From the IMG/VR virus record IMGVR_UViG_3300048625_000042, positions 1-38,854 of that record: a stretch of 38,854 bases of DNA; one strand, 5' to 3'. The position numbers and the translations under genes were made by a program. This stretch comes from a virus. Shown here piece by piece: positions 14,232 to 26,979 of the stretch; within the stretch, counting starts at the first letter, position 1; the number at the start of each line of letters is the position of its first letter. The notes under the pieces were generated by a model that was not told the DNA's origin, did not search any database, and worked only from the letters and a program-made list of their open reading frames with translations.

Positions 14232-14239
14232 TATTTATT
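14232..14239 (-). promoter_or_regulatory. T4-type late promoter AATAAATA
   Basis: The octamer AATAAATA overlaps the TAA stop (14238-14240) of the virion gene. The predicted start is 14226. It would express the DUF7207, 179-aa and spanin genes, all of which suit late expression. Confidence 0.5.
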
Positions 14240-14780
14240 AGGCGTCTGCAAGGATGGCATCGTCGCCATTATCACCAGCAGCAACTGCTGTACGCTTCAT
14301 TGGTACAAGACACTCAACCTTATGACGTGTCTCACCTTGTGAGCCAGTGTAAGTAGTATACTTGTTCCATCCTGGTGTCTTAAGACCTTCAGCACGGTTA
14401 GCAGTAATACCAGCTTCTGTCAAATCTTCAAAGTAAACTGATGGTGCAGTAAACTGAAGAGTATGAGCAGTACCTGCCGCGCCAGTAGTCAAATTAACAG
14501 CAGTACCTGCAGCGGCATTTGCAGCAGTAGTAGCTAACTTGATAAGTCCTTGCCCTGCTACGATAGCAAAGTAAGTAGTGCCAGATGTCAAACCACCAAT
14601 AGCTGTGCCGCCACCATTTGTATAAAGAACAGGTTCGCCTATTTCATACATGTGACCACCAGCAGAGATGTCGATAGTTTCGTTTGTTAAGTTGACAGCT
14701 GTAGTAGCGTCAAAAGTAACTTTCTTAGTTAAGTTCTTTGGCTTAGAAGCCAGAGTATCTGTGTCAGACCATAGTGCCAT
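14238..14780 (-). CDS. virion structural protein (putative), 180 aa
   Basis: A Thr-, Ala- and Gly-rich protein. The core HMYEIGEPVLYTNGGG-TAIGGLTSGTTYFAI ... IKLATTAANAAAGTAV is the 'V-x-Y-x-NGGGT-x-IGGLT-x-GTTY' beta module repeated in phage tail-fibre and virion proteins. Here it occurs once. The start has CAAGGAG and a late promoter CATAAATA (14809-14816); a strong terminator follows, so it is expressed on its own at high level, as a decoration or head protein might be. The exact virion role is unknown. Confidence 0.6.
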   Translation of the reverse strand: MALWSDTDTLASKPKNLTKKVTFDATTAVNLTNETIDISAGGHMYEIGEPVLYTNGGGTAIGGLTSGTTYFAIVAGQGLIKLATTAANAAAGTAVNLTTGAAGTAHTLQFTAPSVYFEDLTEAGITANRAEGLKTPGWNKYTTYTGSQGETRHKVECLVPMKRTAVAAGDNGDDAILADA

Positions 14781-14807: not shown

Positions 14808-17600
14808 TTATTTATGCAATTTAGAATTGCCGAGATTTTTACGAGCGCCAGACTTTGATCCGACTTTACGACCAGCTTTTGGTGCATCATCATGATCAGT
14901 TTCTGGTTCATCCTTTTGAAGAGAACCACCATAACGTGAACCCTTCTTAACACCAGAACCACCACCTTGCTTAGCACCATCGTACTTAGCTTTGTATTCT
15001 GGAGTTCCTGGCCACATACCTTCTTTCAATGCTTGGAGCAAATCAGAAACAGTGTAACCTTCTTTACGAACTGGCTTTGGTGCCTTTTCGAAAGTTTCTT
15101 CGTGTGGCTTTTGACCAGCAGCATTTACCAAATCAGACTCAACAGCTGGCTTCTTATTCTTAGGAGCAACTGGTTTGTCTTTTTGTTCTGGAGTCATTGC
15201 AGCGATAGCAGCTTCTTCCAACTCAGCGTCTTCTTTACGTAGAGCACGACCGAGTGCCTTGTTGTGTGCTTGGCCAGTCTTATGTTCTGGTTCAGCATCA
15301 GGTACTGGATTGTTTAACTTAAAACGAGCACCACGAGAAGCATCCATCATCTTACGCTTTGTAGCGTTTTCTTTGTTGCGTTCTTCGATCTGTTCAACTT
15401 CTTCTTTTAAATCAGAGTGCTTGATCTTAGTCTTTGGACCATCATTGGCAGAGTGTAGATGAACATCATCACCTTGACGCTTGGCAGTCCAGTGACGACC
15501 ATCTTCAGTCTTGAACTTGTGTTCTTGGTTATCACTTAATGAGTGAATAGCTTTGTGATGTTCTGGGTGCATTGGAACAGAGAAAGAAGCACCATGGTGT
15601 GCAGTCTTCATAGTACCCCAAGAGTATTTCTTAGTCTCAACTTTAGCATAGGCTTCGTCGATAACTTCAACTTCTTCGTTCTGCTTAGCCATTCCAACTT
15701 TACCATTCTGTGGAATGCCCATTTTCTTCTGTAAGTCTTTCTTGTGTCCTTCATCATCTGGACCACCAAGAACTTCAGCTGCTTTCTTGGCAACTTTCTT
15801 AACAGCGTCCATTACACCTTCTTCAACTTTTTTCTTCTTTGATGGTGTATTAGTTAATGTAGGAATAGAATCATCGCCAGACGATTGTAATGTACCTTCT
15901 TTAACTAAAGTCTTGAATGATTTTAATCCCATTTCTTTCTCCTGAGTTTCTTCTGCTATACGTGAACGATTGATAATAGATTCTTCGATAGTCTCTTCTT
16001 TAAGAGACATAGCCTTTTCGTGATGTTCTTCAGACTTTTGAGCATGTGTATCTGCTACGCTATGACGACCCTTCTCAGAGTGCCACTGTGAAAGGTTTTC
16101 ATGATGGTCAGCCATATGCATATGGTAATCGAATGGTCTAGCTTGAGACTTAGCTGCTTCAGCAGAACGTTTGTTTTCTTCAGACTTTGCATAAGCATCA
16201 GACTCTTCAGACATTGTACGGATCTTAGAAACAATCTTACCGTATGTCTTAGCCTTTGGATCTTTTGGAGCGATAACTACTGGAGACTTTTTCTCATAAG
16301 CACCACGTTTTTCTTCTTCAGCCATAGCTTCCTCGTGAATCTTATAACCTTGCTTTGTGATATGAGCACGAGCTAAATGTTCCAACTCATGTTTCTTACG
16401 AGTAGTCAATGGAGTAGTAACATGACGTTCATGTTTCTTACCATCTTCAACTCCAGGCTTTGATACATTATACTTATAAGTGTGACGATATAACTCGCCA
16501 CCTTCGTCATCTTCACGTTTCTTTTTAGCGAAACCAGTACGGTTGTCGTGGACACTTTCCATCATCCCAGCTTTGCGCTTAAGCGCAGCAATGATGTGTC
16601 CACGAAACCCACCTTTATTTTTCTTATTGGATAGTTCTTGTTTGGCAAGATTCTTATCATCGAAGTCTTCGAATTGCATCTCTTCCTCTTTCATATGCTT
16701 AAAGTATTCTACTTGTTTTAATCGTTTCTTGGCACCAGCAAGTGTTGAAGATTTGCCGAGATTTTTATTACCGTGTTCGCTTTCAACTTCGTAACCACCT
16801 GCAACCTTTTCGATATGCTCATTGGTCTTTTGTGGAGCAGGTTTCTTTAGAAGTTCGTCTCCAGCTTTACGAGCAGAAGCTGCTTTCTCTTGCTCGCGTT
16901 GGAATGCTTTCTGCAGCTTCATTGCTGCAGTCATACGAACTTCCATAAATGATTGGTAGCTAATGGCTTCTTCTTTAATACCAGAACCATGACGAACATC
17001 CTTCATTAACTCATGAGCATGTTTATCAGAAACGTGAGCTGGAACGCCCTTACGGAATTCACCGAAGTTACCTGCATGGGCATGTTCGCGCATCTTTGTA
17101 CCAGACATTCCAGATGTACCCTCAGAGTCTGGATCACGTTCACCAGATGAGTGCATTGTGATAGACTTGAATTTAAAAGAACCATGCTTGTGTTCTTCAC
17201 CAGTGTTGTACTTGTGAAGAAGGTCATGCATTTCTTTATGGCGATCTGAACCAGCAACTACGTGTAGGTGTTCAACACCACTCTTATGTAGTGCAGCGGC
17301 ATGATGAAGAATCGTTGGTGATTCTTTAGAAGCAGCTTTAACATTAGTCTCTGAAGAGTAACGTTTGATATGTTTAATTTTCTGTTCAGCACTAAGAGGG
17401 TTTTTCTTAGCGTCTTGAGAGTGAGAAACGATTAGGCTATGTGGAGCATTATGTTCTTTGGCAACAGCATGTAGTTTATTGATAACTTCCATGTGGCCAG
17501 TTGTAGGTGGGTTCATTCGAGCAAATGACATAACATGGTGCTTTTCAGAACCATGCCCACCAGCATCTTTAGCTTCGAATAATTCTTTGAATGATTTCAT
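14808..17600 (-). CDS. NMNAT-like nucleotidyltransferase with long basic tail
   Basis: A 930-aa protein. Residues 20-210 are a nucleotidyltransferase of the HxGH superfamily: MNPPTTGH at 29-36 and MSGTKMR at 165-171 (the ISxTxxR site), with GERDPDS nearby. Such enzymes join NMN or similar to ATP to form NAD-type products. The rest is low-complexity, Lys-, Glu- and His-rich, with recurring EEVEQIEE/EEVEVIDE pieces common in marine T4-like phage proteins. The N-terminus MKSFKELFEA resembles T4 internal-protein capsid-targeting peptides. ATG overlaps the DUF6267 stop as ATGA. A packaged, injected protein is one option. Confidence 0.7.
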   Translation of the reverse strand: MKSFKELFEAKDAGGHGSEKHHVMSFARMNPPTTGHMEVINKLHAVAKEHNAPHSLIVSHSQDAKKNPLSAEQKIKHIKRYSSETNVKAASKESPTILHHAAALHKSGVEHLHVVAGSDRHKEMHDLLHKYNTGEEHKHGSFKFKSITMHSSGERDPDSEGTSGMSGTKMREHAHAGNFGEFRKGVPAHVSDKHAHELMKDVRHGSGIKEEAISYQSFMEVRMTAAMKLQKAFQREQEKAASARKAGDELLKKPAPQKTNEHIEKVAGGYEVESEHGNKNLGKSSTLAGAKKRLKQVEYFKHMKEEEMQFEDFDDKNLAKQELSNKKNKGGFRGHIIAALKRKAGMMESVHDNRTGFAKKKREDDEGGELYRHTYKYNVSKPGVEDGKKHERHVTTPLTTRKKHELEHLARAHITKQGYKIHEEAMAEEEKRGAYEKKSPVVIAPKDPKAKTYGKIVSKIRTMSEESDAYAKSEENKRSAEAAKSQARPFDYHMHMADHHENLSQWHSEKGRHSVADTHAQKSEEHHEKAMSLKEETIEESIINRSRIAEETQEKEMGLKSFKTLVKEGTLQSSGDDSIPTLTNTPSKKKKVEEGVMDAVKKVAKKAAEVLGGPDDEGHKKDLQKKMGIPQNGKVGMAKQNEEVEVIDEAYAKVETKKYSWGTMKTAHHGASFSVPMHPEHHKAIHSLSDNQEHKFKTEDGRHWTAKRQGDDVHLHSANDGPKTKIKHSDLKEEVEQIEERNKENATKRKMMDASRGARFKLNNPVPDAEPEHKTGQAHNKALGRALRKEDAELEEAAIAAMTPEQKDKPVAPKNKKPAVESDLVNAAGQKPHEETFEKAPKPVRKEGYTVSDLLQALKEGMWPGTPEYKAKYDGAKQGGGSGVKKGSRYGGSLQKDEPETDHDDAPKAGRKVGSKSGARKNLGNSKLHK
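14809..14816 (-). promoter_or_regulatory. T4-type late promoter CATAAATA
   Basis: The octamer CATAAATA lies within the last codons of the 930-aa gene. The predicted start is 14803, giving a 22-base leader with AAGGAG for the 180-aa virion protein. Confidence 0.6.
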
Positions 17601-18799
17601 TTTCTTACTTTCAACAAATTAGCTTTTGCAAACTCGGCACGGTTCACTAGTTTAGTTGGTTCATTGTCATGGTGAACAACAAAGCCTTCTGGCTTTGACT
17701 TCTGTCCAGCAATATGGTGTTCAAGACCACCTTCATGAGACTCTAAGTGTTTAACCAGAGTATTCTTGGCTTGATGTAGGTGGTGATGCATAGCAAACAT
17801 GTTGTCGTAGTGAGACTTGTTTGCTTCGATATGAGATTGATGTTCAGCACCTTCAGCAGTCTTCTTTGCTTGACCAGCTTCAGACTTTAGTTTACCGACT
17901 GCCTTTTCATAGTGTCCAGCAACATGAGACTTGAAACCAGATGCTGTTGGGATCTGATCATTCTTCACAGTTGAGTTGATGTAAGTAGCCATGTGGCCAC
18001 CTTCACCTTGATGGCGTTCAGTAGCTTTATACATAGAACCACTATGAGTATTATGAATATCTTTAGCAGCATTCATATGAGCATGGAACTTGTCTTGAGC
18101 ATCTTTAGGATAAGATACTTTGCTTGTATCGTGCTCTGGAGACTTTTGGTAAACGTCTTTATGTGTACCGAAACCTTCGCTGCTGTGCAGTGGCTTTGCA
18201 GACATAGACTCTAAATCTTTACCATGGTATTGTGTATGAGTCACAATACCAACTTTAGACTTCTTAACTTCATCTGCTTCTTTACCGTGAGCAGTATAAG
18301 TGATAGTGTTTGGAGTAAAAGAAGCAGAACCATTCTCATGGTGAGTAACGTCTGTCTTAGAGTGCATCAAGTCACCTTGATAAACACCAGACTTTGGTGC
18401 TACCTTTGGTAGATGATCCAATGCGGCTTTTAATTTATCAGCAAGACCTGGAGCATGACCATGATGCTTATCGATGTCAGAGTGAGAATAGTTAATCTTT
18501 GGAGTCTTGTTGAACGCAGACTTAGAAGCCACAAAGAACTTACCAGACTTTGGGTGATGGCCATAAACAACAGCTGGAGAACCGTCATACTTCATAGACA
18601 GATTCGAGTTCTTTGCGCCAGAAGACATATGAGTATGGGCACGAAGTAATGAACCATGTGCATGTTCAAAACCTTTTGGACCGTGCAATAAAGGACGATC
18701 TTCAGCGTGATGGATGTGCTTTAGCTTATCACCAGATGAATCAGATCCATGACCTAACGCATCTTTTTCTTCTTTTAAGTAAGTTAGAAACGACTTCAT
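17597..18799 (-). CDS. DUF6267-like protein with ligase-type motifs
   Basis: A 400-aa His- and Lys-rich protein. In order it shows MKYDGSP (69-75), YQGDLM (140-145), VGIVTHTQYHG (183-193), EGFVVH (371-376) and KLVNRAEF (383-390). These sit like motifs I (KxDG), III, IIIa, IV and V of ATP-dependent DNA/RNA ligases and capping enzymes. Lys70 would be the adenylated residue. I recall this as DUF6267 of T4-like marine phages. The N-terminus MKSFLTYLKE resembles a T4 capsid-targeting peptide with an L-x-E protease site. It lies one base after dps and overlaps the 930-aa gene. Confidence 0.6.
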   Translation of the reverse strand: MKSFLTYLKEEKDALGHGSDSSGDKLKHIHHAEDRPLLHGPKGFEHAHGSLLRAHTHMSSGAKNSNLSMKYDGSPAVVYGHHPKSGKFFVASKSAFNKTPKINYSHSDIDKHHGHAPGLADKLKAALDHLPKVAPKSGVYQGDLMHSKTDVTHHENGSASFTPNTITYTAHGKEADEVKKSKVGIVTHTQYHGKDLESMSAKPLHSSEGFGTHKDVYQKSPEHDTSKVSYPKDAQDKFHAHMNAAKDIHNTHSGSMYKATERHQGEGGHMATYINSTVKNDQIPTASGFKSHVAGHYEKAVGKLKSEAGQAKKTAEGAEHQSHIEANKSHYDNMFAMHHHLHQAKNTLVKHLESHEGGLEHHIAGQKSKPEGFVVHHDNEPTKLVNRAEFAKANLLKVRK

Positions 18800-18800
18800 T

Positions 18801-19238
18801 TTATCCCTTTAGTGAAGCACGTAGTTGCCAGCCATGCTTCTCATGTGTATCGATACGATCTGCAATAAAGTTGCAGAGACCTTGCTTATTGTCTTTCTGA
18901 GCAAGGGCGAATACTTTATTTAGGCTAGAGATGACTTCTACGTTTGCAGCTAAAGCTGAACGAAGCATACCTTCAATGTCTGGGATACCATTCTCTTCTT
19001 GAATAGTCTTGTGTTCATATAACTCTGAGATGCTCTTTGGAGCATAAGCATCTAATTTACGTAGGTTTTCTGCTAAAGGATCTACAGCACCATAGACATC
19101 ATCATATAAGTCTCCGAAAAACTCATGGTATTGGCTAAACTCAATACCTTCTGTATTCCAGTGGAATGAGTGTAGTTTAAAATACATTACGAATGTATTT
19201 GCCAGAGCTATTTTTAAAGCTGCTTGTAATTCAGTCAT
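18801..19238 (-). CDS. Dps-like ferritin-family protein
   Basis: A 145-aa four-helix protein. Dps proteins store iron and protect DNA from oxidative damage. The ferroxidase pattern is present: HSFHWN in helix A, YHEFFGDLYDDVY, then VDPLAEN-LRKL giving the D and E ligands. Overall length is close to bacterial Dps but lacks a long basic N-terminal tail. Similar genes occur in T4-like marine phages. It overlaps the upstream nucleotidyltransferase as ATGA and lies in the late operon from 20145. It could act in the infected cell or on phage DNA. Confidence 0.8.
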   Translation of the reverse strand: MTELQAALKIALANTFVMYFKLHSFHWNTEGIEFSQYHEFFGDLYDDVYGAVDPLAENLRKLDAYAPKSISELYEHKTIQEENGIPDIEGMLRSALAANVEVISSLNKVFALAQKDNKQGLCNFIADRIDTHEKHGWQLRASLKG

Positions 19239-20116
19239 TTGTTATTCTTTCTCCATGTTTTGAACGATTCTTTAAACATCGGATCAAATGGGTTTCTAAA
19301 ATCATCTGGACATACACCAGTGTGTTCTTTACCGCACTGACCACATGGATCTACTTTAATCTGTGGGTGCTTCTTTGTTTTTGTTGGCTTAGTTTCAGTA
19401 GGCTGCACGTCTTGAATCCATTTAGAAGTAAGTTTACCTGATGCTTCTTTTACTAGCAAGTGGTTAGAACCACGCTTGACGATCTCAAATTGTTCACCAT
19501 TTGATTCTACCATCTCTCCAACCTTAAAGATCTCTCCACGGAAATATTGTTCACGTAGATCATCTTTGACTAGGTTAATCTGTTCCTTGATTGCTTCTAA
19601 TCCTGACCCCATTCTAACATCGTTCATCAAACGACGAGAGTCGATCTCTCTTACAGCAGTTGGAAGACCCTTCTTGAATTCTTCGTACAACCCTTTGGAT
19701 GCGGCAGAACGAAGTGATTCATCAGAGTCTGGATCTTTCTCTCCAGCAGAGATAACCTCTACACCCAAACGACGGATAGCACCAGCTTTATCGGCGCTAG
19801 TTACAACTACGATATTCTTGTAGTTTTCTTTTAATTGTTTGATTAGGGCTGGAACTGCGTCCATGGACTCAACGAAGTTGGTCTTAGGAAACACCAGATT
19901 GAGATACTGGAGTTTCTTTTCTACTAATAGGGGATTCTTTTTGTGATCAGATGCAGAGGATGCATAGATTACGTGGTCTGCGCCTCTTTGTTCGGCGAGC
20001 TTTTTGACAGCCTTTACTACAAGTTCATGTCCCATTGTTGGAGGGTTAAACTTGCCACAGGCTAGAACCACCGTTTTGGATGGTAGTTCTTTTAGTAATT
20101 GTTTGTAATCTTTCAT
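19235..20116 (-). CDS. NMNAT-like nucleotidyltransferase, 293 aa
   Basis: A paralogue of the domain in the 930-aa protein. FNPPTMGH (23-30) is the HxGH-type nucleotide-binding motif, and GEKDPDSDESLRSAA aligns with the partner's ISxTxxR region but lacks the MSGTKM portion, so the second motif is degenerate. A C-terminal addition holds CGQCGKEHTGVC, a likely zinc knuckle. The N-terminus MKDYKQLLKE fits the same capsid-targeting pattern as its two operon partners. It is the first gene after the late promoter at 20145-20152. Activity may be altered; the substrate is unproven. Confidence 0.7.
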   Translation of the reverse strand: MKDYKQLLKELPSKTVVLACGKFNPPTMGHELVVKAVKKLAEQRGADHVIYASSASDHKKNPLLVEKKLQYLNLVFPKTNFVESMDAVPALIKQLKENYKNIVVVTSADKAGAIRRLGVEVISAGEKDPDSDESLRSAASKGLYEEFKKGLPTAVREIDSRRLMNDVRMGSGLEAIKEQINLVKDDLREQYFRGEIFKVGEMVESNGEQFEIVKRGSNHLLVKEASGKLTSKWIQDVQPTETKPTKTKKHPQIKVDPCGQCGKEHTGVCPDDFRNPFDPMFKESFKTWRKNNK

Positions 20117-20144: not shown

Positions 20145-20152
20145 TATTTATC
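20145..20152 (-). promoter_or_regulatory. T4-type late promoter GATAAATA
   Basis: The octamer GATAAATA lies just past the stop of the 332-aa gene. The predicted start is 20139, giving a 22-base leader. It would drive four overlapping or adjacent genes (293 aa, Dps, DUF6267, 930 aa). Confidence 0.55.
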
Positions 20153-21898: not shown

Positions 21899-22504
21899 TT
21901 AACTAAGTTGCTTCTCCAAATGTGCAAGGACTTTCGATTGTTCCTCTAAGTTAGTGTTATTGAACTCAGTAATGTAGGACATCAGGTCGAAATTAGACAG
22001 TATGTTACTATATTTAGTTTCTCGCCCTCTTAGGAATTGCTCGGATTGGTCGGAGCCTCGATCCTTATAACGCTGCTCTAGCATGGTCTGTGGAGCCTTT
22101 AAATAGACTACCTGAAGTTCGGTATTCGGGAGACCCATACAAAACTCTAGGAAAGACTGATTGAATACTCGGTCACCTTCGAAAAGGATGTTACAGTTAT
22201 GGGAGGCGATCCATTCTTGGAGTGGAGGTTGAACAGCCATAGAAAGACGATCTGTTCCAGCAAAGGTTTCACCCTCATCGTACTTACCCAGAACATACAA
22301 GTCTCGATCTTGGTTGTAGCTAGCAACTACTAACTTGGCTGGAGTAGTTTCGATCCAGCTTTTGTCTTCCATATACTTACGAAAGAGAGTAGTCTTACCA
22401 GTCCCTGGAACACCACCAACGGCGATAATCTTTCGAGTCTTCAGAGTGTTCTTGATCAACTCGACTTTGATCTCGTCTTGAACACCAAATTTATCAATCA
22501 TCAT
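21899..22504 (-). CDS. 5-hydroxymethyluracil DNA kinase-like P-loop kinase
   Basis: A 201-aa kinase. Walker A is GVPGTGKT (31-38). Two further blocks, YDEGETFAGTDRLSMAVQP (75-93) and ILFEGDRVFNQSF (106-118), match what I recall of the HMUDK family, which phosphorylates 5-hydroxymethyluracil in DNA as the step before its hydroxyl is displaced. It overlaps the second radical SAM gene (ATGATG junction) and closes the modification cluster. A general nucleotide kinase is the alternative, but the neighbours argue for HMUDK. The start may be one codon later (two ATGs in a row). Confidence 0.7.
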   Translation of the reverse strand: MMIDKFGVQDEIKVELIKNTLKTRKIIAVGGVPGTGKTTLFRKYMEDKSWIETTPAKLVVASYNQDRDLYVLGKYDEGETFAGTDRLSMAVQPPLQEWIASHNCNILFEGDRVFNQSFLEFCMGLPNTELQVVYLKAPQTMLEQRYKDRGSDQSEQFLRGRETKYSNILSNFDLMSYITEFNNTNLEEQSKVLAHLEKQLS

Positions 22505-23988
22505 ATTGCTCCAATCATTTCTTTATACTGATTAAGTTTAAAATTATTAACATTATCAAACATATATTTCGCAGACAAATTATCAAACGTATCATTTACT
22601 TGGTCTAAAGATAACCCCATACTTAAATACTGTTGAATGGCAAAGTCTGCAGGTTTATTTAATGGGTGACGTTTCTTATACATCTCTTCTGCTAAAATCT
22701 GGCACTGCTTGTAATCTAATCCTTGACTTTTAAGAGTCCAGAAGTTTTGATCATCTACCTCATACCCATAAATTTCTGGGTTAAGATTAAACTGAGAAGC
22801 ATTCGGATTTCGTTTCGTCATAGTTTTACCCAACAAACGTAACGGGTAGATCTCAATGAAAGATAATGGATTATCTTTTTGTAGAATCCATTGTTCTAGT
22901 TCATTGAAGTATTCATGTGTGTCATAAGGTAAACCAAGAATAAATCCTGCACCCATTTTAACATCGTCTCCCCATTTCTCTCGTAGCCAATGTAAACGAT
23001 CTTTTACTTTATTTGGATGCAAACCCTTACCAATCGCTCTTGCGCTTTCGTAGTGTAAACTTTCAATTCCAAAGAAGTTTCCAATTAAACCCATTTCTTT
23101 TAGTAAGTCTGCTTGATGCGGAAACTTATTGATAAGGTCAATTCTTAGATAAGCACTAAATTTAATTTTGAATGGTAACGAAGTGAACAATTTATGTATG
23201 CTCTCAACTTTATCATTGTCATCGTTAAAAGTATCATCTACGATATAGTAATTAGTGCATCCAGTAGTTTCCCATGTTCGGATTAAATCATCTCTGACTT
23301 CTTCAACATCTCTAAGATAAGTACCCTTCTTTTTACCAAGTAGTCCATAACCGCAAAATTTACATTTGAAGATACAACCACGTGCCATCTCTAATGGCAA
23401 AGACTCATCGGGTAAGACATTAAAGTCTTCTCTCCACCAATGAGTTCGTATGTTATCCATTTTAGGTTCTTCGTAATCATTAGAAACGATAACCATACTC
23501 TTACCATTACTACTTGTGTGGTGTTTACCGAGTAGACTAATATCATTATACTTCAGATATTTTGTATAGGCAATTGTAGATGTATCTGCATATCCTTGGA
23601 TGTAGCAGTCAATTTCATCATCGTTTTCATTGATTGCTCTAACACCAGCATACACAAGTTTTGCTTTGCTGTGAGATCTAATATAGTCAAACAACTTTAA
23701 TACATCATCATATTGGATATGTGGATACAAACGTTGCTTTTTATCTTCTGACCATCCCCAGAAAAATGTAGATGAGAACCCAACCCAAAGAGTATCTTGT
23801 TCAAGAACTTTTGACATAGCAGAAATGATTTCATCAATAGAGAGATACTGAGTGAAATCAATAACCCTTGCGTCAAAACCTTCATTTTCTAACGCAGAAG
23901 CTATTCTATATGGTCCAAGGCTCCGCATTATTCTTGGATAATGGTTATGTTGATGCATTCCACCAGCGAGTATAATGCAGTCTGCCAC
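22501..23988 (-). CDS. radical SAM protein with B12-binding-like domain (copy 2)
   Basis: A 495-aa protein. Residues 1-150 form a Rossmann-like domain of the B12-binding type (CIILAGG, LGPYRIASALENEGFDARVIDF, LWVGFSSTFFW), though no DxHxxG cobalamin-ligand motif is seen. The radical SAM core has C205-x3-C209-x2-C212 (CIFKCKFC) binding the 4Fe-4S cluster, and FGIESL and GAGFILGLPYDT in the expected later positions. The start is GTG at 23988, next to the previous stop. It is about half identical by eye to the copy at 24462. The role is probably a radical rearrangement or C-C bond step on a modified base. Confidence 0.8.
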   Translation of the reverse strand: MADCIILAGGMHQHNHYPRIMRSLGPYRIASALENEGFDARVIDFTQYLSIDEIISAMSKVLEQDTLWVGFSSTFFWGWSEDKKQRLYPHIQYDDVLKLFDYIRSHSKAKLVYAGVRAINENDDEIDCYIQGYADTSTIAYTKYLKYNDISLLGKHHTSSNGKSMVIVSNDYEEPKMDNIRTHWWREDFNVLPDESLPLEMARGCIFKCKFCGYGLLGKKKGTYLRDVEEVRDDLIRTWETTGCTNYYIVDDTFNDDNDKVESIHKLFTSLPFKIKFSAYLRIDLINKFPHQADLLKEMGLIGNFFGIESLHYESARAIGKGLHPNKVKDRLHWLREKWGDDVKMGAGFILGLPYDTHEYFNELEQWILQKDNPLSFIEIYPLRLLGKTMTKRNPNASQFNLNPEIYGYEVDDQNFWTLKSQGLDYKQCQILAEEMYKKRHPLNKPADFAIQQYLSMGLSLDQVNDTFDNLSAKYMFDNVNNFKLNQYKEMIGAI

Positions 23989-24462
23989 TTAAACTTTACC
24001 TTGCTTAACGTCTTCGATTAGACTAACCAATTCTTCTCGGGTAAACACCCATACACGACCACGGAAAGAGTGGGTAGAAGTATCGGGGTCATGCTTCTTA
24101 GAGAATGACAGCTTCTTAATAAACTCACGAGCACAATTCTTGGCCATGGCTTCTTTAATTTCTTCAGCATAGTTGACGTTCTGTTCTTTCAGCGTCAACA
24201 GTTCTTGCTCTTGGACTTTATGTTCAACAACGAATTGATTGAACTCATATTTCTCGAGCATGTCATCTGGGTTCACTTTGATGGTGAAACCACTACCAAC
24301 ACCCTGATTAGCAGTAACAACATTATGGGCACTCCAATTACCAACAGCACCAATAGAAGATGGAGTAGTAAGCACTGCGTTAGACATAATGGTTTGTAAT
24401 CCATTGTTAGTCATAATTTTCAAATCACCATCGTCATTAATAACATCACCAACATTACTCAT
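23989..24462 (-). CDS. 157-aa protein between the radical SAM genes
   Basis: Start ATG at 24462 overlaps the upstream stop as TGATG; an in-frame GTG one codon earlier is less likely. The N-terminal half is Asn-, Gly- and Val-rich (SNVGDVIND, TTPSSIGAVGNWSAHNVVTAN). A helix follows, then AREFIKKLSFSKKHD and FRGRVWVFTREEL. No family is recognised with confidence. Its place between two paralogous enzymes and its coupling to both suggest a partner or an unrelated insertion. Nothing marks it as a peptide substrate (no Cys-rich core). Confidence 0.55.
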   Translation of the reverse strand: MSNVGDVINDDGDLKIMTNNGLQTIMSNAVLTTPSSIGAVGNWSAHNVVTANQGVGSGFTIKVNPDDMLEKYEFNQFVVEHKVQEQELLTLKEQNVNYAEEIKEAMAKNCAREFIKKLSFSKKHDPDTSTHSFRGRVWVFTREELVSLIEDVKQGKV

Positions 24463-25970
24463 CACATAGCTCCAATCATTTGTTTATAAGAATCAATTTT
24501 TAGTTTATTCATAGCAGGTATATCATATTTGTTAAAGATTTCAATTTCAGTAAGGTTGTATAAATCATCTATCTTAATCCCAGTGTTCAACGCAGTGATC
24601 ATTTGGAACTCCGCAAATTTATTTTTACTACAAATATCTCTACTAAAATCTGATGCTATCTGTTTGCAAATATCATACGACAGGTTTTGAGATTTCAGTT
24701 CCCACTTGATATTGTCTGTTGGAAATGTGTATCCATAGATGTCGGGGTTTAAAGAAAACTCAGAAGTATAAGCATCAAGTCTACCGCCTTTTTGTCGATT
24801 AAACAAATATAATGGATAGAAAGAGATTTGTTGCAAAGGGTTATCTGATTCTAGACACCATTTATACAAGTCATCATAGTACTCAAAAGTATCATAAGGC
24901 AACCCAAGAATAAACCCAGCGCCGATGTTAACCTTTTTATTCCATTTCTCATGCAACCAATATAATCTATCCTTGACTTTTTGTGGAGACAATCCTTTAC
25001 CGATACACTTAGCACTATCTGCTTGCAGAGTTTCAATACCAAAGTAGGTGCCAACTAAACCCATCTCAGTTAGCATATCTGCTTGATGCGGAAACTTATT
25101 GATAAGATCCATTCTTAGATAAGCACTAAATTGAGGTTTAAAAGGTAACGAAGTGAATACTTTATGTAAAGATTCAATCTTATCATTGTCATCGTTAAAA
25201 GTGTCATCAGTAAAGTAGTAAGAAGCAGTCCCTGTGGACTCCCACATCTTTATTAGTTCTTCTTTGATACACTCAGGGTCACGCAGATAAGTGCCTTTCT
25301 TTTTACCGAGCAATGGATATGTACAGAACTTACACTTGAAAATACACCCACGAGCAAGTTCAATAGGTAAACCTTCATTTGGTAGAATGTTGTATTGTTT
25401 ATTCCACCAGTTAGTTGTGATATTATCCATTTTAGGTTCTGGATACTTGTTAGAATCTATAACGTAACTAATGGAATCATCGATAGTAATCTCTTGCACG
25501 TCGGTTAGTGGAACACCATCTTTAAGATAGTTTGATAATTCTATAATTGAGTTATCTGCATAACCAACCACATAGTAGTCGATGTTTTTATCAACTAAAG
25601 AGAATGGTGCCTTGGCTCCACCATAGACGACTTTAGCAGTACTATGCTCTCTAACGTATGAAATTATCTTATTGATGTCTTCATAGTCAGTCCAGTACAT
25701 TCTTTCTAGTTGAGATCTATTGTAGAAGTTATCATTCGCCCAAAAAAATGTAGATGAGAAACCAACCCATAAGGTGTCAGAAGTTAAATTCTTGCTTATG
25801 ACTTTAATAATTTCATCAACTGTCATATTAACAACATAGTCAATAACAGTTGTGCTATATCCAGCGGCTTCTAACGAAGTCGCTACACGATATGGTCCAA
25901 GACTCCGTTGAACTTTAGGGAAATGTTCAGGAGTCCAAGTACCACCAGTTAAAATAATACAGTTAGACAA
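24462..25970 (-). CDS. radical SAM protein with B12-binding-like domain (copy 1)
   Basis: The start is placed at TTG (25970) by alignment with its paralogue: TTG-encoded M-SNCIILTGG matches MADCIILAGG. GGA lies 5 bases upstream. This gives 502 aa. C209-x3-C213-x2-C216 (CIFKCKFC) is the radical SAM cluster site; LGPYRVATSLEAAGY and LWVGFSSTFFW mark the Rossmann-like N-terminal domain; FGIETL and GAGFILGLPYDTFEYY follow. Both copies share an EPKMDNI-x-T-x-WW block before the cluster. Overlaps the transferase-like gene by 8 bases. Confidence 0.8.
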   Translation of the reverse strand: MSNCIILTGGTWTPEHFPKVQRSLGPYRVATSLEAAGYSTTVIDYVVNMTVDEIIKVISKNLTSDTLWVGFSSTFFWANDNFYNRSQLERMYWTDYEDINKIISYVREHSTAKVVYGGAKAPFSLVDKNIDYYVVGYADNSIIELSNYLKDGVPLTDVQEITIDDSISYVIDSNKYPEPKMDNITTNWWNKQYNILPNEGLPIELARGCIFKCKFCTYPLLGKKKGTYLRDPECIKEELIKMWESTGTASYYFTDDTFNDDNDKIESLHKVFTSLPFKPQFSAYLRMDLINKFPHQADMLTEMGLVGTYFGIETLQADSAKCIGKGLSPQKVKDRLYWLHEKWNKKVNIGAGFILGLPYDTFEYYDDLYKWCLESDNPLQQISFYPLYLFNRQKGGRLDAYTSEFSLNPDIYGYTFPTDNIKWELKSQNLSYDICKQIASDFSRDICSKNKFAEFQMITALNTGIKIDDLYNLTEIEIFNKYDIPAMNKLKIDSYKQMIGAM

Positions 25971-26979
25971 AATTATCCAGCCCAATTAATAAAGGTTGAT
26001 CATCAAACATCATCTCAAGTCCACTCAACTGCCCTGTCGCTAAGAAGTCTCCGAATCTTTCCTTATTGATACCACGCTTGTGAATATGTATGCTGTTAAT
26101 AGTTTCTTCTCTAGAATCCCACATCACTTGCCATTCAATACCAGCCCATCCATCACGTTCAGCCACTTGAATCTCTTCAGCTTGTCGATCAAGGTAATAG
26201 CTAAGATATCTACCATGCTTAGTTCTAAATAGTTTCTTAAAGGAACATAGGCAGGTTTCCATTGTAAAGTAGTCTACTTGACTAGCCAACGATGGAAACC
26301 GATCTTTCATCTCAGATCTAATTCCGTTGCCAATAGACTCAAGTGTAGCGTACTCGCTTCCAGTGAGTTTTCGATCCATATCGTCATCCTGCCCAATGGC
26401 AAGAAGAAGTCCATTACGATGAGAACGGGAACCATCATAATCATCCAGCATGAGAGAAGTAGGCTCACAAATAATACCAGCAGTGTGTTTAAGATGCTGC
26501 ATGTAAAACCAAGTAGAATATCTACCAAACTTGTGCAAGTTTCCTTTAAGTACGCTCCACAACGCATCAAAGTTTTGAGACTCATTGTCCCCGTAGTACG
26601 ATTCGAGTTTTTCACGTTGAGATCCATTTCCAATAAATTTCTGATATGATTCGAACATCGCAGGTAGATGCCCTTTGTTCCACTTTGTATCTGTCTGGTA
26701 ACGTAGACGTTTGTAGTTCTTAGAATTCCAATCAGTGATACGTCCAAGGTCAGCCAGTTCGTAGTCAGGGAATTCGTTCTTCAATACCCATGCAGTTGGA
26801 AGTTGATAGGTGTTACCATATAACCACGCAAGCCAGATACGTTCTTCATCATTATGTTCATATCGATCATTGAGATAGTTCGTAGCCCATACTGCTGGAT
26901 CACAATCATTATACTGAAGTGACCAAGCATACCAACGGATGAATGCTTCACGTCGGTTTTCTTTTAAACGATAATCCAT
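25963..26979 (-). CDS. amino acid:DNA transferase-like protein (AGPT-Pplase/ADDT type)
   Basis: A 338-aa helical protein. Blocks that stand out: NDCDPAVWATNYL (24-36), RIWLAWLYGNTYQLPTAW (47-64), NKGHLPAMFESYQKFIG, LHKFGRYSTWFYMQHL (148-163) and DDYDGSRSHRNGLLLAIG (179-196). These fit my memory of the glycosylase-like AADT/aGPT-Pplase families, which replace the pyrophosphate on hydroxymethyluracil in DNA with an amino acid or amine. It ends IGLDNFV, similar to the polymerase tail. TAATG overlap with the GNAT gene. The call leans on context; an HMM test is needed to confirm it. Confidence 0.55.
   Translation of the reverse strand: MDYRLKENRREAFIRWYAWSLQYNDCDPAVWATNYLNDRYEHNDEERIWLAWLYGNTYQLPTAWVLKNEFPDYELADLGRITDWNSKNYKRLRYQTDTKWNKGHLPAMFESYQKFIGNGSQREKLESYYGDNESQNFDALWSVLKGNLHKFGRYSTWFYMQHLKHTAGIICEPTSLMLDDYDGSRSHRNGLLLAIGQDDDMDRKLTGSEYATLESIGNGIRSEMKDRFPSLASQVDYFTMETCLCSFKKLFRTKHGRYLSYYLDRQAEEIQVAERDGWAGIEWQVMWDSREETINSIHIHKRGINKERFGDFLATGQLSGLEMMFDDQPLLIGLDNFV

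What the first reader, a model, noticed from the sequence alone, without database searches (positions are those of the whole stretch)
14808..20116. Three late proteins carry T4-like capsid-targeting N termini: possible injected NAD/ligase effectors
The starts MKDYKQLLKE (293 aa), MKSFLTYLKE (DUF6267) and MKSFKELFEA (930 aa) share the pattern M-K-x-(F/Y)-x-x-(L/F/Y)-(L/I/F)-x-E. The T4 internal protein IPI begins MKTYQEFIAE and is cut by the prohead protease after (L/I)-x-E. All three are basic, in one late operon from a GATAAATA promoter. If packaged and injected like T4 Alt, NMNAT-type and ligase-type enzymes would enter the host with the DNA.
Basis: partly seen in the sequence, partly recalled or inferred. 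Interest (0 to 1): 0.8.

Follow-up and report, generated by a model that had tools for sequence, protein, structure and literature searches.

The report
Phage head-packaging tags on enzymes
Three enzyme-like proteins of a marine-type T4-like phage start with a short tag that closely matches the tag phage T4 uses to load proteins into its head, and relatives of one of them have been found in purified virus particles, so this phage probably injects ready-made enzymes into its host together with its DNA.

Summary
Two of the three proteins (293 aa and DUF6267) fit the stated pattern exactly. The 930-aa protein does not: its Glu is at residue 9, though the core LFE|A is intact. By chance 0.008 exact matches are expected in this window; two occur. 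Across 15 T4-like genomes or fragments, 27 of 40 motif hits fall in this one small island, where about 1 is expected. In DUF6267 homologues the four most constant leader positions are 10, 4, 8 and 7, the residues that T4 mutagenesis assigned to targeting (4, 7) and processing (8, 10). All complete relatives encode a gp21-type protease. In cyanophage S-CREM2 the exact pattern picks 3 of 219 proteins, all enzymes found by mass spectrometry in its virions, including the cytidylyltransferase homologue.

Best reading: a T4-type capsid-targeting sequence loads a nucleotidyltransferase/ligase cargo set, probably injected. DUF6267 has invariant ligase motifs and a ligase-like predicted fold. The 293-aa protein has an adenylyltransferase fold, but NMNAT cannot be told from PPAT. 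Packaging is likely. Cleavage, injection and substrates are unproven for this phage.

The parts
20087..20116 (-). Capsid-targeting-like leader MKDYKQLLKE (residues 1-10) of the 293-aa nucleotidyltransferase
   Evidence: Exact match to the stated pattern. In 19 homologous N termini 16 fit; E10 is replaced by Q or G in 3.
19235..20116 (-). 293-aa adenylyl/cytidylyltransferase-fold protein (CTP_transf_like; phrog_3041/395 'cytidyltransferase')
   Evidence: Pfam E=1.6e-4, PHROG E=2e-35. Model residues 12-174 match PPAT Z 12.8 and NMNAT Z 12.3.
18770..18799 (-). Capsid-targeting-like leader MKSFLTYLKE (residues 1-10) of DUF6267
   Evidence: Exact match. E10 is E in 114 of 119 homologues. Isolated low-confidence helix followed by a disordered linker in the model.
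17597..18799 (-). DUF6267, a ligase-like covalent nucleotidyltransferase (motif I K70-Y-D-G, IV E371-G-F-V, V K383-L-V)
   Evidence: PF19782 E=3.6e-101. K70/D72/G73 constant in 119 of 119 homologues. 49 of the 50 listed VIA-align rows are RNA/DNA ligases, best Z 8.3.
17574..17600 (-). Shortened leader MKSFKELFE|A of the 930-aa protein
   Evidence: Does not fit the literal pattern (E at 9). LFE|A equals the predicted major-capsid maturation site ALFE|A of relatives G001 and G003. 40 of 44 homologous N termini carry a leader of this class.
14808..17600 (-). 930-aa protein: nucleotidyltransferase domain (residues ~20-217, NPPTTGH ... SGTKMR) plus a long basic His/Lys/Glu-rich tail
   Evidence: PF01467 E=3.4e-4, phrog_3041 E=6e-54. 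Signature motifs conserved in homologues.
18801..19238 (-). Dps/ferritin-like protein inside the same operon; no leader (internal control)
   Evidence: PF00210 E=7e-24. 0 of 25 homologous N termini have the motif; pI 5.3.
20145..20152 (-). T4-late-promoter-like GATAAATA, 36 nt upstream of the 293-aa start codon
   Evidence: TATAAATA at the same place in relative G004; TATAAATA or AATAAATA upstream of the virion-detected homologues of S-CREM2 and S-SCSM1.
14238..14780 (-). Head-protein-like gene (phrog_613 'head protein') directly downstream, with its own CATAAATA at 14809-14816
   Evidence: phrog_613 E=8e-19; promoter-like site.

Best explanation
The first 9-10 residues of the three proteins are a T4-type capsid-targeting sequence. 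During late expression the leaders dock the basic cargo proteins onto the scaffold core of the prohead. The phage's gp21-type (S77) protease then cuts after the (L/I/F)-x-E of the leader, as it does at the equivalent site of the major capsid protein. The freed enzymes stay in the head among the DNA and enter the host with it. The cargo is a nucleotide-chemistry set: two adenylyl/cytidylyltransferase-fold proteins and one RNA/DNA-ligase-like protein. Shown by sequence: the leader, its conservation pattern, its concentration in this island, the protease in relatives, and the enzyme motifs. Shown by others for homologues: presence of the cytidylyltransferase/NMNAT-like protein in virions. Inferred: packaging in this phage, cleavage, injection, and the reaction catalysed.
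For: (1) Chance is excluded: 2 exact hits against 0.008 expected in the window, 11 against 0.11 over 11 genomes or fragments. (2) In 45 distinct DUF6267 N termini the lowest-entropy positions are 10 (0.00), 4 (0.26), 8 (0.50) and 7 (0.87). T4 IPIII mutagenesis put targeting at 4 and 7 and processing at 8 and 10 (PMC9026906 section 2.6). (3) Genome-wide, 27 of 40 motif hits lie in the island (79 of 3493 ORFs), expected 0.96. In relatives G002 and G003 all four hits of each genome are there, on DUF6267, DUF6321 and nucleotidyltransferase genes. (4) T4 control: the exact pattern returns IPII, IPIII and gp61.1 only. (5) An S77 protease is present in all 14 annotated phages with homologues or T4 that were searched and in all five 166-174-kb relatives. 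(6) Major capsid proteins carry the same kind of site at the T4 gp23 position: T4 FLTE|A, S-CRM01 FLAE|A, G001/G003 ALFE|A. (7) Virion proteomics: cytidylyltransferase/NMNAT-like proteins detected in S-CREM2, S-SZBM1 and S-SCSM1 particles (PMC10665884, PMC9146016, PMC9602691). Their leaders are MKNFSSFLTE|A, MRFRQFIIE|A and MKSFLQFLKE|A. (8) In S-CREM2 the exact pattern marks 3 of 219 annotated CDSs (SAM lyase gp6, kinase gp14, cytidylyltransferase gp154) and all three are virion-detected: Fisher p=0.013, or 0.0022 without known structural proteins. A loosened pattern gives 5 of 6, p=0.0032 and 0.00017. (9) The acidic Dps in the same operon never carries the leader.
Against: The window is a fragment and its own protease and capsid genes are not in it. 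No proteome of this phage exists. The authors of the cited proteomes warn that such enzymes could be co-purified contaminants. The leader is not necessary for virion detection: S-SCSM1 gp89, 90 and 92 and S-CREM2 gp155, 156 and 160 are virion-detected without a clean leader. Nor is it always sufficient: S-SZBM1_191 has it and was not reported. Many DUF6267 homologues in cyanophages lack it (S-PM2, P-HM2, S-CRM01, S-SZBM1). In the 293-aa family the cut would fall before Leu-Pro, and E10 is Q or G in 3 of 19. S-TIM5, where no S77 was found, still has one exact hit.
Confidence: 0.8

Rival explanations
1. The leaders are simply the natural amphipathic N-terminal helix of these folds (shared ancestry or fold constraint) and have nothing to do with the capsid.
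For: The two nucleotidyltransferases are homologous to each other (29% identity), so their leaders could be inherited. The 293-aa leader runs almost straight into strand beta-1 and is modelled as a helix.
Against: DUF6267, DUF6321 proteins, a kinase, a SAM lyase and a HAD-like protein have no detected relationship to each other yet carry the same leader. In DUF6267 the leader is separated from the domain by a disordered, length-variable linker, and many homologues lack it altogether. The constant positions are those of the T4 sequence.
Confidence: 0.08
2. The leader binds the scaffold so the proteins act as core or assembly factors inside the prohead (like T4 IPIII or gp67/68), and delivery into the host is incidental.
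For: T4 IPIII affects head assembly (PMC9026906). The long basic low-complexity tail of the 930-aa protein looks like a DNA- or core-binding segment. Internal L-x-E sites exist, though not above shuffled expectation (p=0.11-0.14).
Against: Intact catalytic motifs (K70xDG in 119 of 119; NPPTTGH and SGTKMR in most 930-type homologues) imply an enzyme that acts somewhere. Nucleotide chemistry inside a head has no obvious use.
Confidence: 0.2
3. The proteins are ordinary late cytoplasmic enzymes (auxiliary metabolism), and published virion detections are contamination.
For: The authors of the S-CREM2 and S-SCSM1 proteomes raise this possibility themselves. Peptide counts for the cytidylyltransferases are low (3 in S-CREM2, 2 in S-SZBM1).
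Against: Contamination would not select proteins by an N-terminal tag, yet all three exact-pattern proteins of S-CREM2 are detected. The same homologous protein class recurs in three phages examined here.
Confidence: 0.12

Closest known systems
T4 internal proteins IPI, IPII, IPIII with capsid-targeting sequences, and Alt
   Same: 10-residue N-terminal leader with aromatic at 4, hydrophobic at 7 and 8, Glu at 10; cognate gp21/S77 protease in relatives; basic cargo; one leader on unrelated cargo.
   Different: Cargo here is nucleotidyltransferase and ligase-like enzymes in one conserved operon next to replication genes, not anti-restriction proteins or an ADP-ribosyltransferase. The 930-aa leader is one residue shorter.
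Virion-associated cytidylyltransferase/NMNAT-like proteins of cyanophages S-CREM2, S-SZBM1, S-SCSM1
   Same: Homologous proteins, leader of the same class, found by mass spectrometry in particles.
   Different: Reported without a packaging mechanism. Here there are two such proteins plus a leader-tagged DUF6267 (those in S-SZBM1, S-CRM01 and S-PM2 lack the leader).
RNA ligases of the Rnl2/NgrRnl type and ATP/NAD-dependent DNA ligases
   Same: KxDG, EGxV and KxV motifs in order; nearest solved folds (Z 8.3, 178 aligned, 3.6 A).
   Different: Constant N-terminal HxxHxED, a Q-G-D in the motif III region, and a five-helix insertion (about 231-351). No sequence match to any PDB chain, and no hhalign match to T4 ligases.
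Phage NAD+ salvage enzymes NadM/NadR and the NARP pathways
   Same: HIGH-superfamily adenylyltransferase domain.
   Different: No Nudix, kinase or NadV partner identified here. PPAT and NMNAT folds score equally, so the substrate is open.

Membership tests
T4-type capsid-targeting sequence (CTS) | N-terminal ~10-residue leader: residues 4 and 7 target, 8 and 10 (Glu) allow processing | tested here: met
   Exact in two proteins, one residue shorter in the third; positions 10, 4, 8, 7 most constant in DUF6267 homologues. Residue roles from PMC9026906.
T4-type capsid-targeting sequence (CTS) | Cognate gp21/S77 prohead protease in the same phage | tested here: inconclusive
   Absent from the 38.9-kb fragment; present in all five 166-174-kb relatives and 14 annotated phages.
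T4-type capsid-targeting sequence (CTS) | Same leader on non-homologous cargo (modularity) | tested here: met
   Nucleotidyltransferases, DUF6267, DUF6321, SAM lyase, kinase, HAD-like protein.
T4-type capsid-targeting sequence (CTS) | Tagged protein is in the virion | not testable with these tools
   Published for homologues only (PMC10665884, PMC9146016, PMC9602691).
T4-type capsid-targeting sequence (CTS) | Leader is cut after Glu and the protein is injected | not testable with these tools
   No N-terminal peptide data held. Capsid-protein sites of the same type exist in relatives.
Covalent nucleotidyltransferase (ligase) superfamily, DUF6267 | Motif I KxDG, motif IV EGxV, motif V Lys, in order | tested here: met
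   K70, D72, G73 constant in 119 of 119; E371, G372, V374, K383 in 118 of 119.
Covalent nucleotidyltransferase (ligase) superfamily, DUF6267 | Ligase adenylation-domain fold | tested here: inconclusive
   49 of 50 VIA-align rows are ligases, but best Z is only 8.3 (178 aligned, 3.6 A) and Foldseek gives no E below 0.001.
NMN adenylyltransferase (NMNAT) | HIGH-superfamily nucleotidyltransferase fold with (H/T)xGH | tested here: met
   NPPTMGH; model matches PPAT/NMNAT over residues 12-174.
NMN adenylyltransferase (NMNAT) | NMN specificity | tested here: inconclusive
   PPAT Z 12.8 and NMNAT Z 12.3 are tied. NCBIfam NMNAT models are far below cut-off. SGTxxR motif intact in the 930-aa protein, degenerate in the 293-aa one.

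The most novel reading that the evidence does not exclude
Kyanoviridae and their relatives pre-load a nucleic-acid or NAD repair kit into the head: a ligase-like enzyme and adenylyltransferases, with PNK-like phosphatase or kinase partners in some relatives. It would act from the first minute of infection against tRNA-cleaving, DNA-nicking or NAD-depleting defences, before any phage gene is expressed. In one form the ligase would use NAD+ and the adenylyltransferase would recycle the released NMN; some phages appear to fuse the two domains, as phrog_455 spans both.
Probability: 0.25. Interest if true: 0.88.

Novelty: new variant of a known kind. Interest (0 to 1): 0.72.

Why it matters
Several groups have found NMNAT-like proteins and kinases in cyanophage particles and could not say whether they are cargo or contamination. 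A recognisable packaging tag on those proteins favours cargo and turns the question into a simple test. It also lets cargo be predicted from genomes: homologues of these genes occur in about 500 deposited phage records, and the leader is common on their DUF6267 and cytidylyltransferase relatives in IMG/VR. No paper in the held open-access library was found to link the capsid-targeting sequence to cyanophages; subscription papers were not searched.

Tried and rejected
(a) Fragmentation of the 930-aa tail by gp21: L-x-E sites are not above shuffled expectation (p=0.11-0.14); not claimed. (b) Sequence-only link of DUF6267 to ligases: no PDB hit and hhalign against T4 proteins found no ligase; the claim rests on motifs and fold. 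(c) A loose leader pattern: it also hits UvsX (MSFLNDVVKEI), EndoV and others, and is only about 3x enriched (40 against 14.35), so conclusions use the strict and medium patterns. (d) ATAAATA as a statistical signal in the window: not enriched; only position conservation is used. (e) S-CBWM1 (reported NMNAT in its virion) as a positive case: no S77 match and 0 leader hits in 211 ORFs, so its protein probably enters another way. S-TIM5 has one exact hit with no S77 match, a caution. (f) HTVC008M gives no medium-pattern hit; its leaders are degenerate (MKTLKELLRKK). (g) The PF03420 'own' search rang in no control genome, so absence from the fragment means nothing.
Full report
What is there. The window is a 38.9-kb fragment of a Kyanoviridae-like T4-type phage; by reading, it also encodes a family B DNA polymerase, UvsX, helicase, primase and ribonucleotide reductase. 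On the minus strand four genes follow each other almost without gaps: a 293-aa nucleotidyltransferase-fold protein, a Dps/ferritin, DUF6267 (400 aa), and a 930-aa protein with the same nucleotidyltransferase domain and a long basic tail. The same kind of island, between UvsX/gp41 and gp61/nrdA, is in HTVC008M, Melnitz and Syn9. Homologues are found in about 500 deposited phage records.

The observation. MKDYKQLLKE and MKSFLTYLKE fit the stated pattern exactly. MKSFKELFEA does not, because its Glu is at 9. Permuting each N-terminal column among the proteins of a genome gives 0.008 exact matches for this window (2 seen) and 0.11 over eleven genomes or fragments (11 seen). Internal Met positions gave none. 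In T4 the exact pattern finds IPII, IPIII and gp61.1. All three window proteins have pI 9.2; the Dps between them has pI 5.3 and its homologues never carry the motif.

Conservation. 45 distinct DUF6267 N termini from IMG/VR keep E10 in all, F4 in 43, L/I8 in all and F/Y7 in all, while positions 2, 3, 5, 6, 9 and 12 onward vary more. The 119-sequence alignment has E10 in 114, including homologues of about 27% identity. The review of T4 work states that IPIII residues 4 and 7 determine targeting and 8 and 10 processing (PMC9026906). The match of the constant positions to that experimental map was not used to find the leaders and is the strongest single argument. Caveat: close relatives are overrepresented. 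In the 293-aa family 16 of 19 fit, with Q or G at position 10 in three; the 930-aa family has 27 of 44 with exact spacing and 40 of 44 if one residue shorter is allowed.

Distribution. In complete relatives the motif is almost confined to this island: G002 4 hits of 279 ORFs and G003 4 of 273, all inside about 5 kb; G001 3 of 4; G004 2 of 2. Over 15 genomes or fragments 27 of 40 hits lie in the island, expected 0.96. Phylogenetic non-independence, and island limits that I set by hand, make the p-value nominal. Leader-bearing cargo in relatives includes DUF6321 proteins and a HAD-like protein weakly matching phage polynucleotide kinase (phrog_415, E=1e-4).

Protease and capsid sites. A gp21-type S77 protease is present in all 14 annotated phages examined for it that carry homologues (or are T4) and in all five 166-174-kb relatives. 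At the place homologous to the T4 gp23 cut (FLTE|A) other phages have FLAE|A, LLTE|A, ILTE|A, FLSE|A and, in the relatives of this window, ALFE|A, ALFE|G or ALFE|T. The 930-aa leader ELFE|A therefore looks like its own lineage's capsid site.

Link to real particles. In S-CREM2 (PMC10665884, Table 3) 52 proteins were detected. Using the annotated starts, the exact pattern marks gp6 (SAM lyase), gp14 (APH-like kinase) and gp154 (cytidylyltransferase), and all three were detected (Fisher p=0.013; 0.0022 without known structural proteins). A loosened pattern marks six, of which five were detected. The virion-detected cytidylyltransferase of S-SZBM1 starts MRFRQFIIE|A and the NMNAT of S-SCSM1 starts MKSFLQFLKE|A. 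The authors considered both packaging and contamination; the tag favours packaging. Limits: several virion-detected island proteins lack a clean leader, and S-SZBM1_191 has it but was not reported.

The enzymes. DUF6267 keeps K70-x-D-G, Q-G-D143, E371-G-x-V and K383-x-V-x-R across 118-119 homologues. Its model (pLDDT 85) has the leader as a detached low-confidence helix before a disordered linker. Among 1000 chains re-aligned, 49 of the 50 listed are RNA or DNA ligases (best NgrRnl, Z 8.3, 178 aligned, 3.6 A), but Foldseek alone is not significant. I call it ligase-like, with chemistry untested. The 293-aa model has the PPAT/NMNAT fold over 12-174 (Z 12.8 and 12.3, tied), so 'NAD' is not established. 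PHROG family 455 spans both a DUF6267 part and a nucleotidyltransferase part, which suggests the two act together.

Expression. A GATAAATA lies 36 nt upstream of the 293-aa start codon, with TATAAATA at the same place in G004 and T4-late-like boxes at -28 and -31 for the S-CREM2 and S-SCSM1 homologues. This is consistent with late expression but not proof.

Verdict. The leaders are very probably functional capsid-targeting sequences (0.8). Delivery into the host is likely by analogy with T4 (about 0.65). What the cargo does there is open: early nucleic-acid end repair or NAD/adenylate chemistry are the leading guesses (about 0.25 for the full pre-loaded repair-kit reading). Relative to what is known, it joins two existing facts, the T4 capsid-targeting sequence and cyanophage virion NMNAT-like proteins, and adds a ligase-like cargo. 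Hence 'new variant of a known kind'.

Noticed in passing
Locus L304 (T4 AF158101 18966-19130): T4 gp61.1 (54 aa) begins MKTFKEFIKED, a perfect capsid-targeting-like leader, but is annotated only as hypothetical; it may be an overlooked internal protein.
   Followed up: partly
window 18801-19238: An acidic Dps/ferritin-like gene sits between two leader-tagged genes in the same operon yet never carries the leader in homologues.
   Followed up: yes
L284:17426-18043 and L001:21721-22383: Relatives carry, in the same island, a leader-tagged HAD-like protein weakly matching polynucleotide kinase and a Zeta-toxin/PNK-like P-loop protein starting MIPFILKEG: possible end-repair partners of DUF6267.
   Followed up: partly
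L013 7968-9374 (phage C48C1): The annotated cytidyltransferase start (8031) is probably 21 codons too far downstream; the in-frame upstream sequence reads IKNFSQYLLEEERE, a leader with a non-ATG first codon.
   Followed up: no
L115:7704-10313 (S-CREM2 gp12): A virion-detected protein annotated as Cas9 has no Pfam match; it has a leader-like LRFASFMAE|A at residues 17-25, so the Cas9 name looks doubtful.
   Followed up: partly
S-SZBM1 122311-122628 and S-SCSM1 44215-44535: A conserved ~105-aa protein (MKSFKSFLSESVNISGDF / MKTFKQFMSESVNISGDF) has the leader, lies next to structural genes, and was not reported in either virion proteome.
   Followed up: no
window 22501-23988 and 24462-25985: Two neighbouring radical-SAM-like proteins share the same Cys motif (ARGCIFKCKFC...LLGKKKGTYLRD), apparently a duplication; read by eye only.
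   Followed up: no
L249:2439-2726, L254:8847-9311, L267:3814-4752: DUF6321-domain proteins in relatives carry the leader and lie between DUF6267 and the nucleotidyltransferase; the window has no separate DUF6321 gene there.
   Followed up: partly
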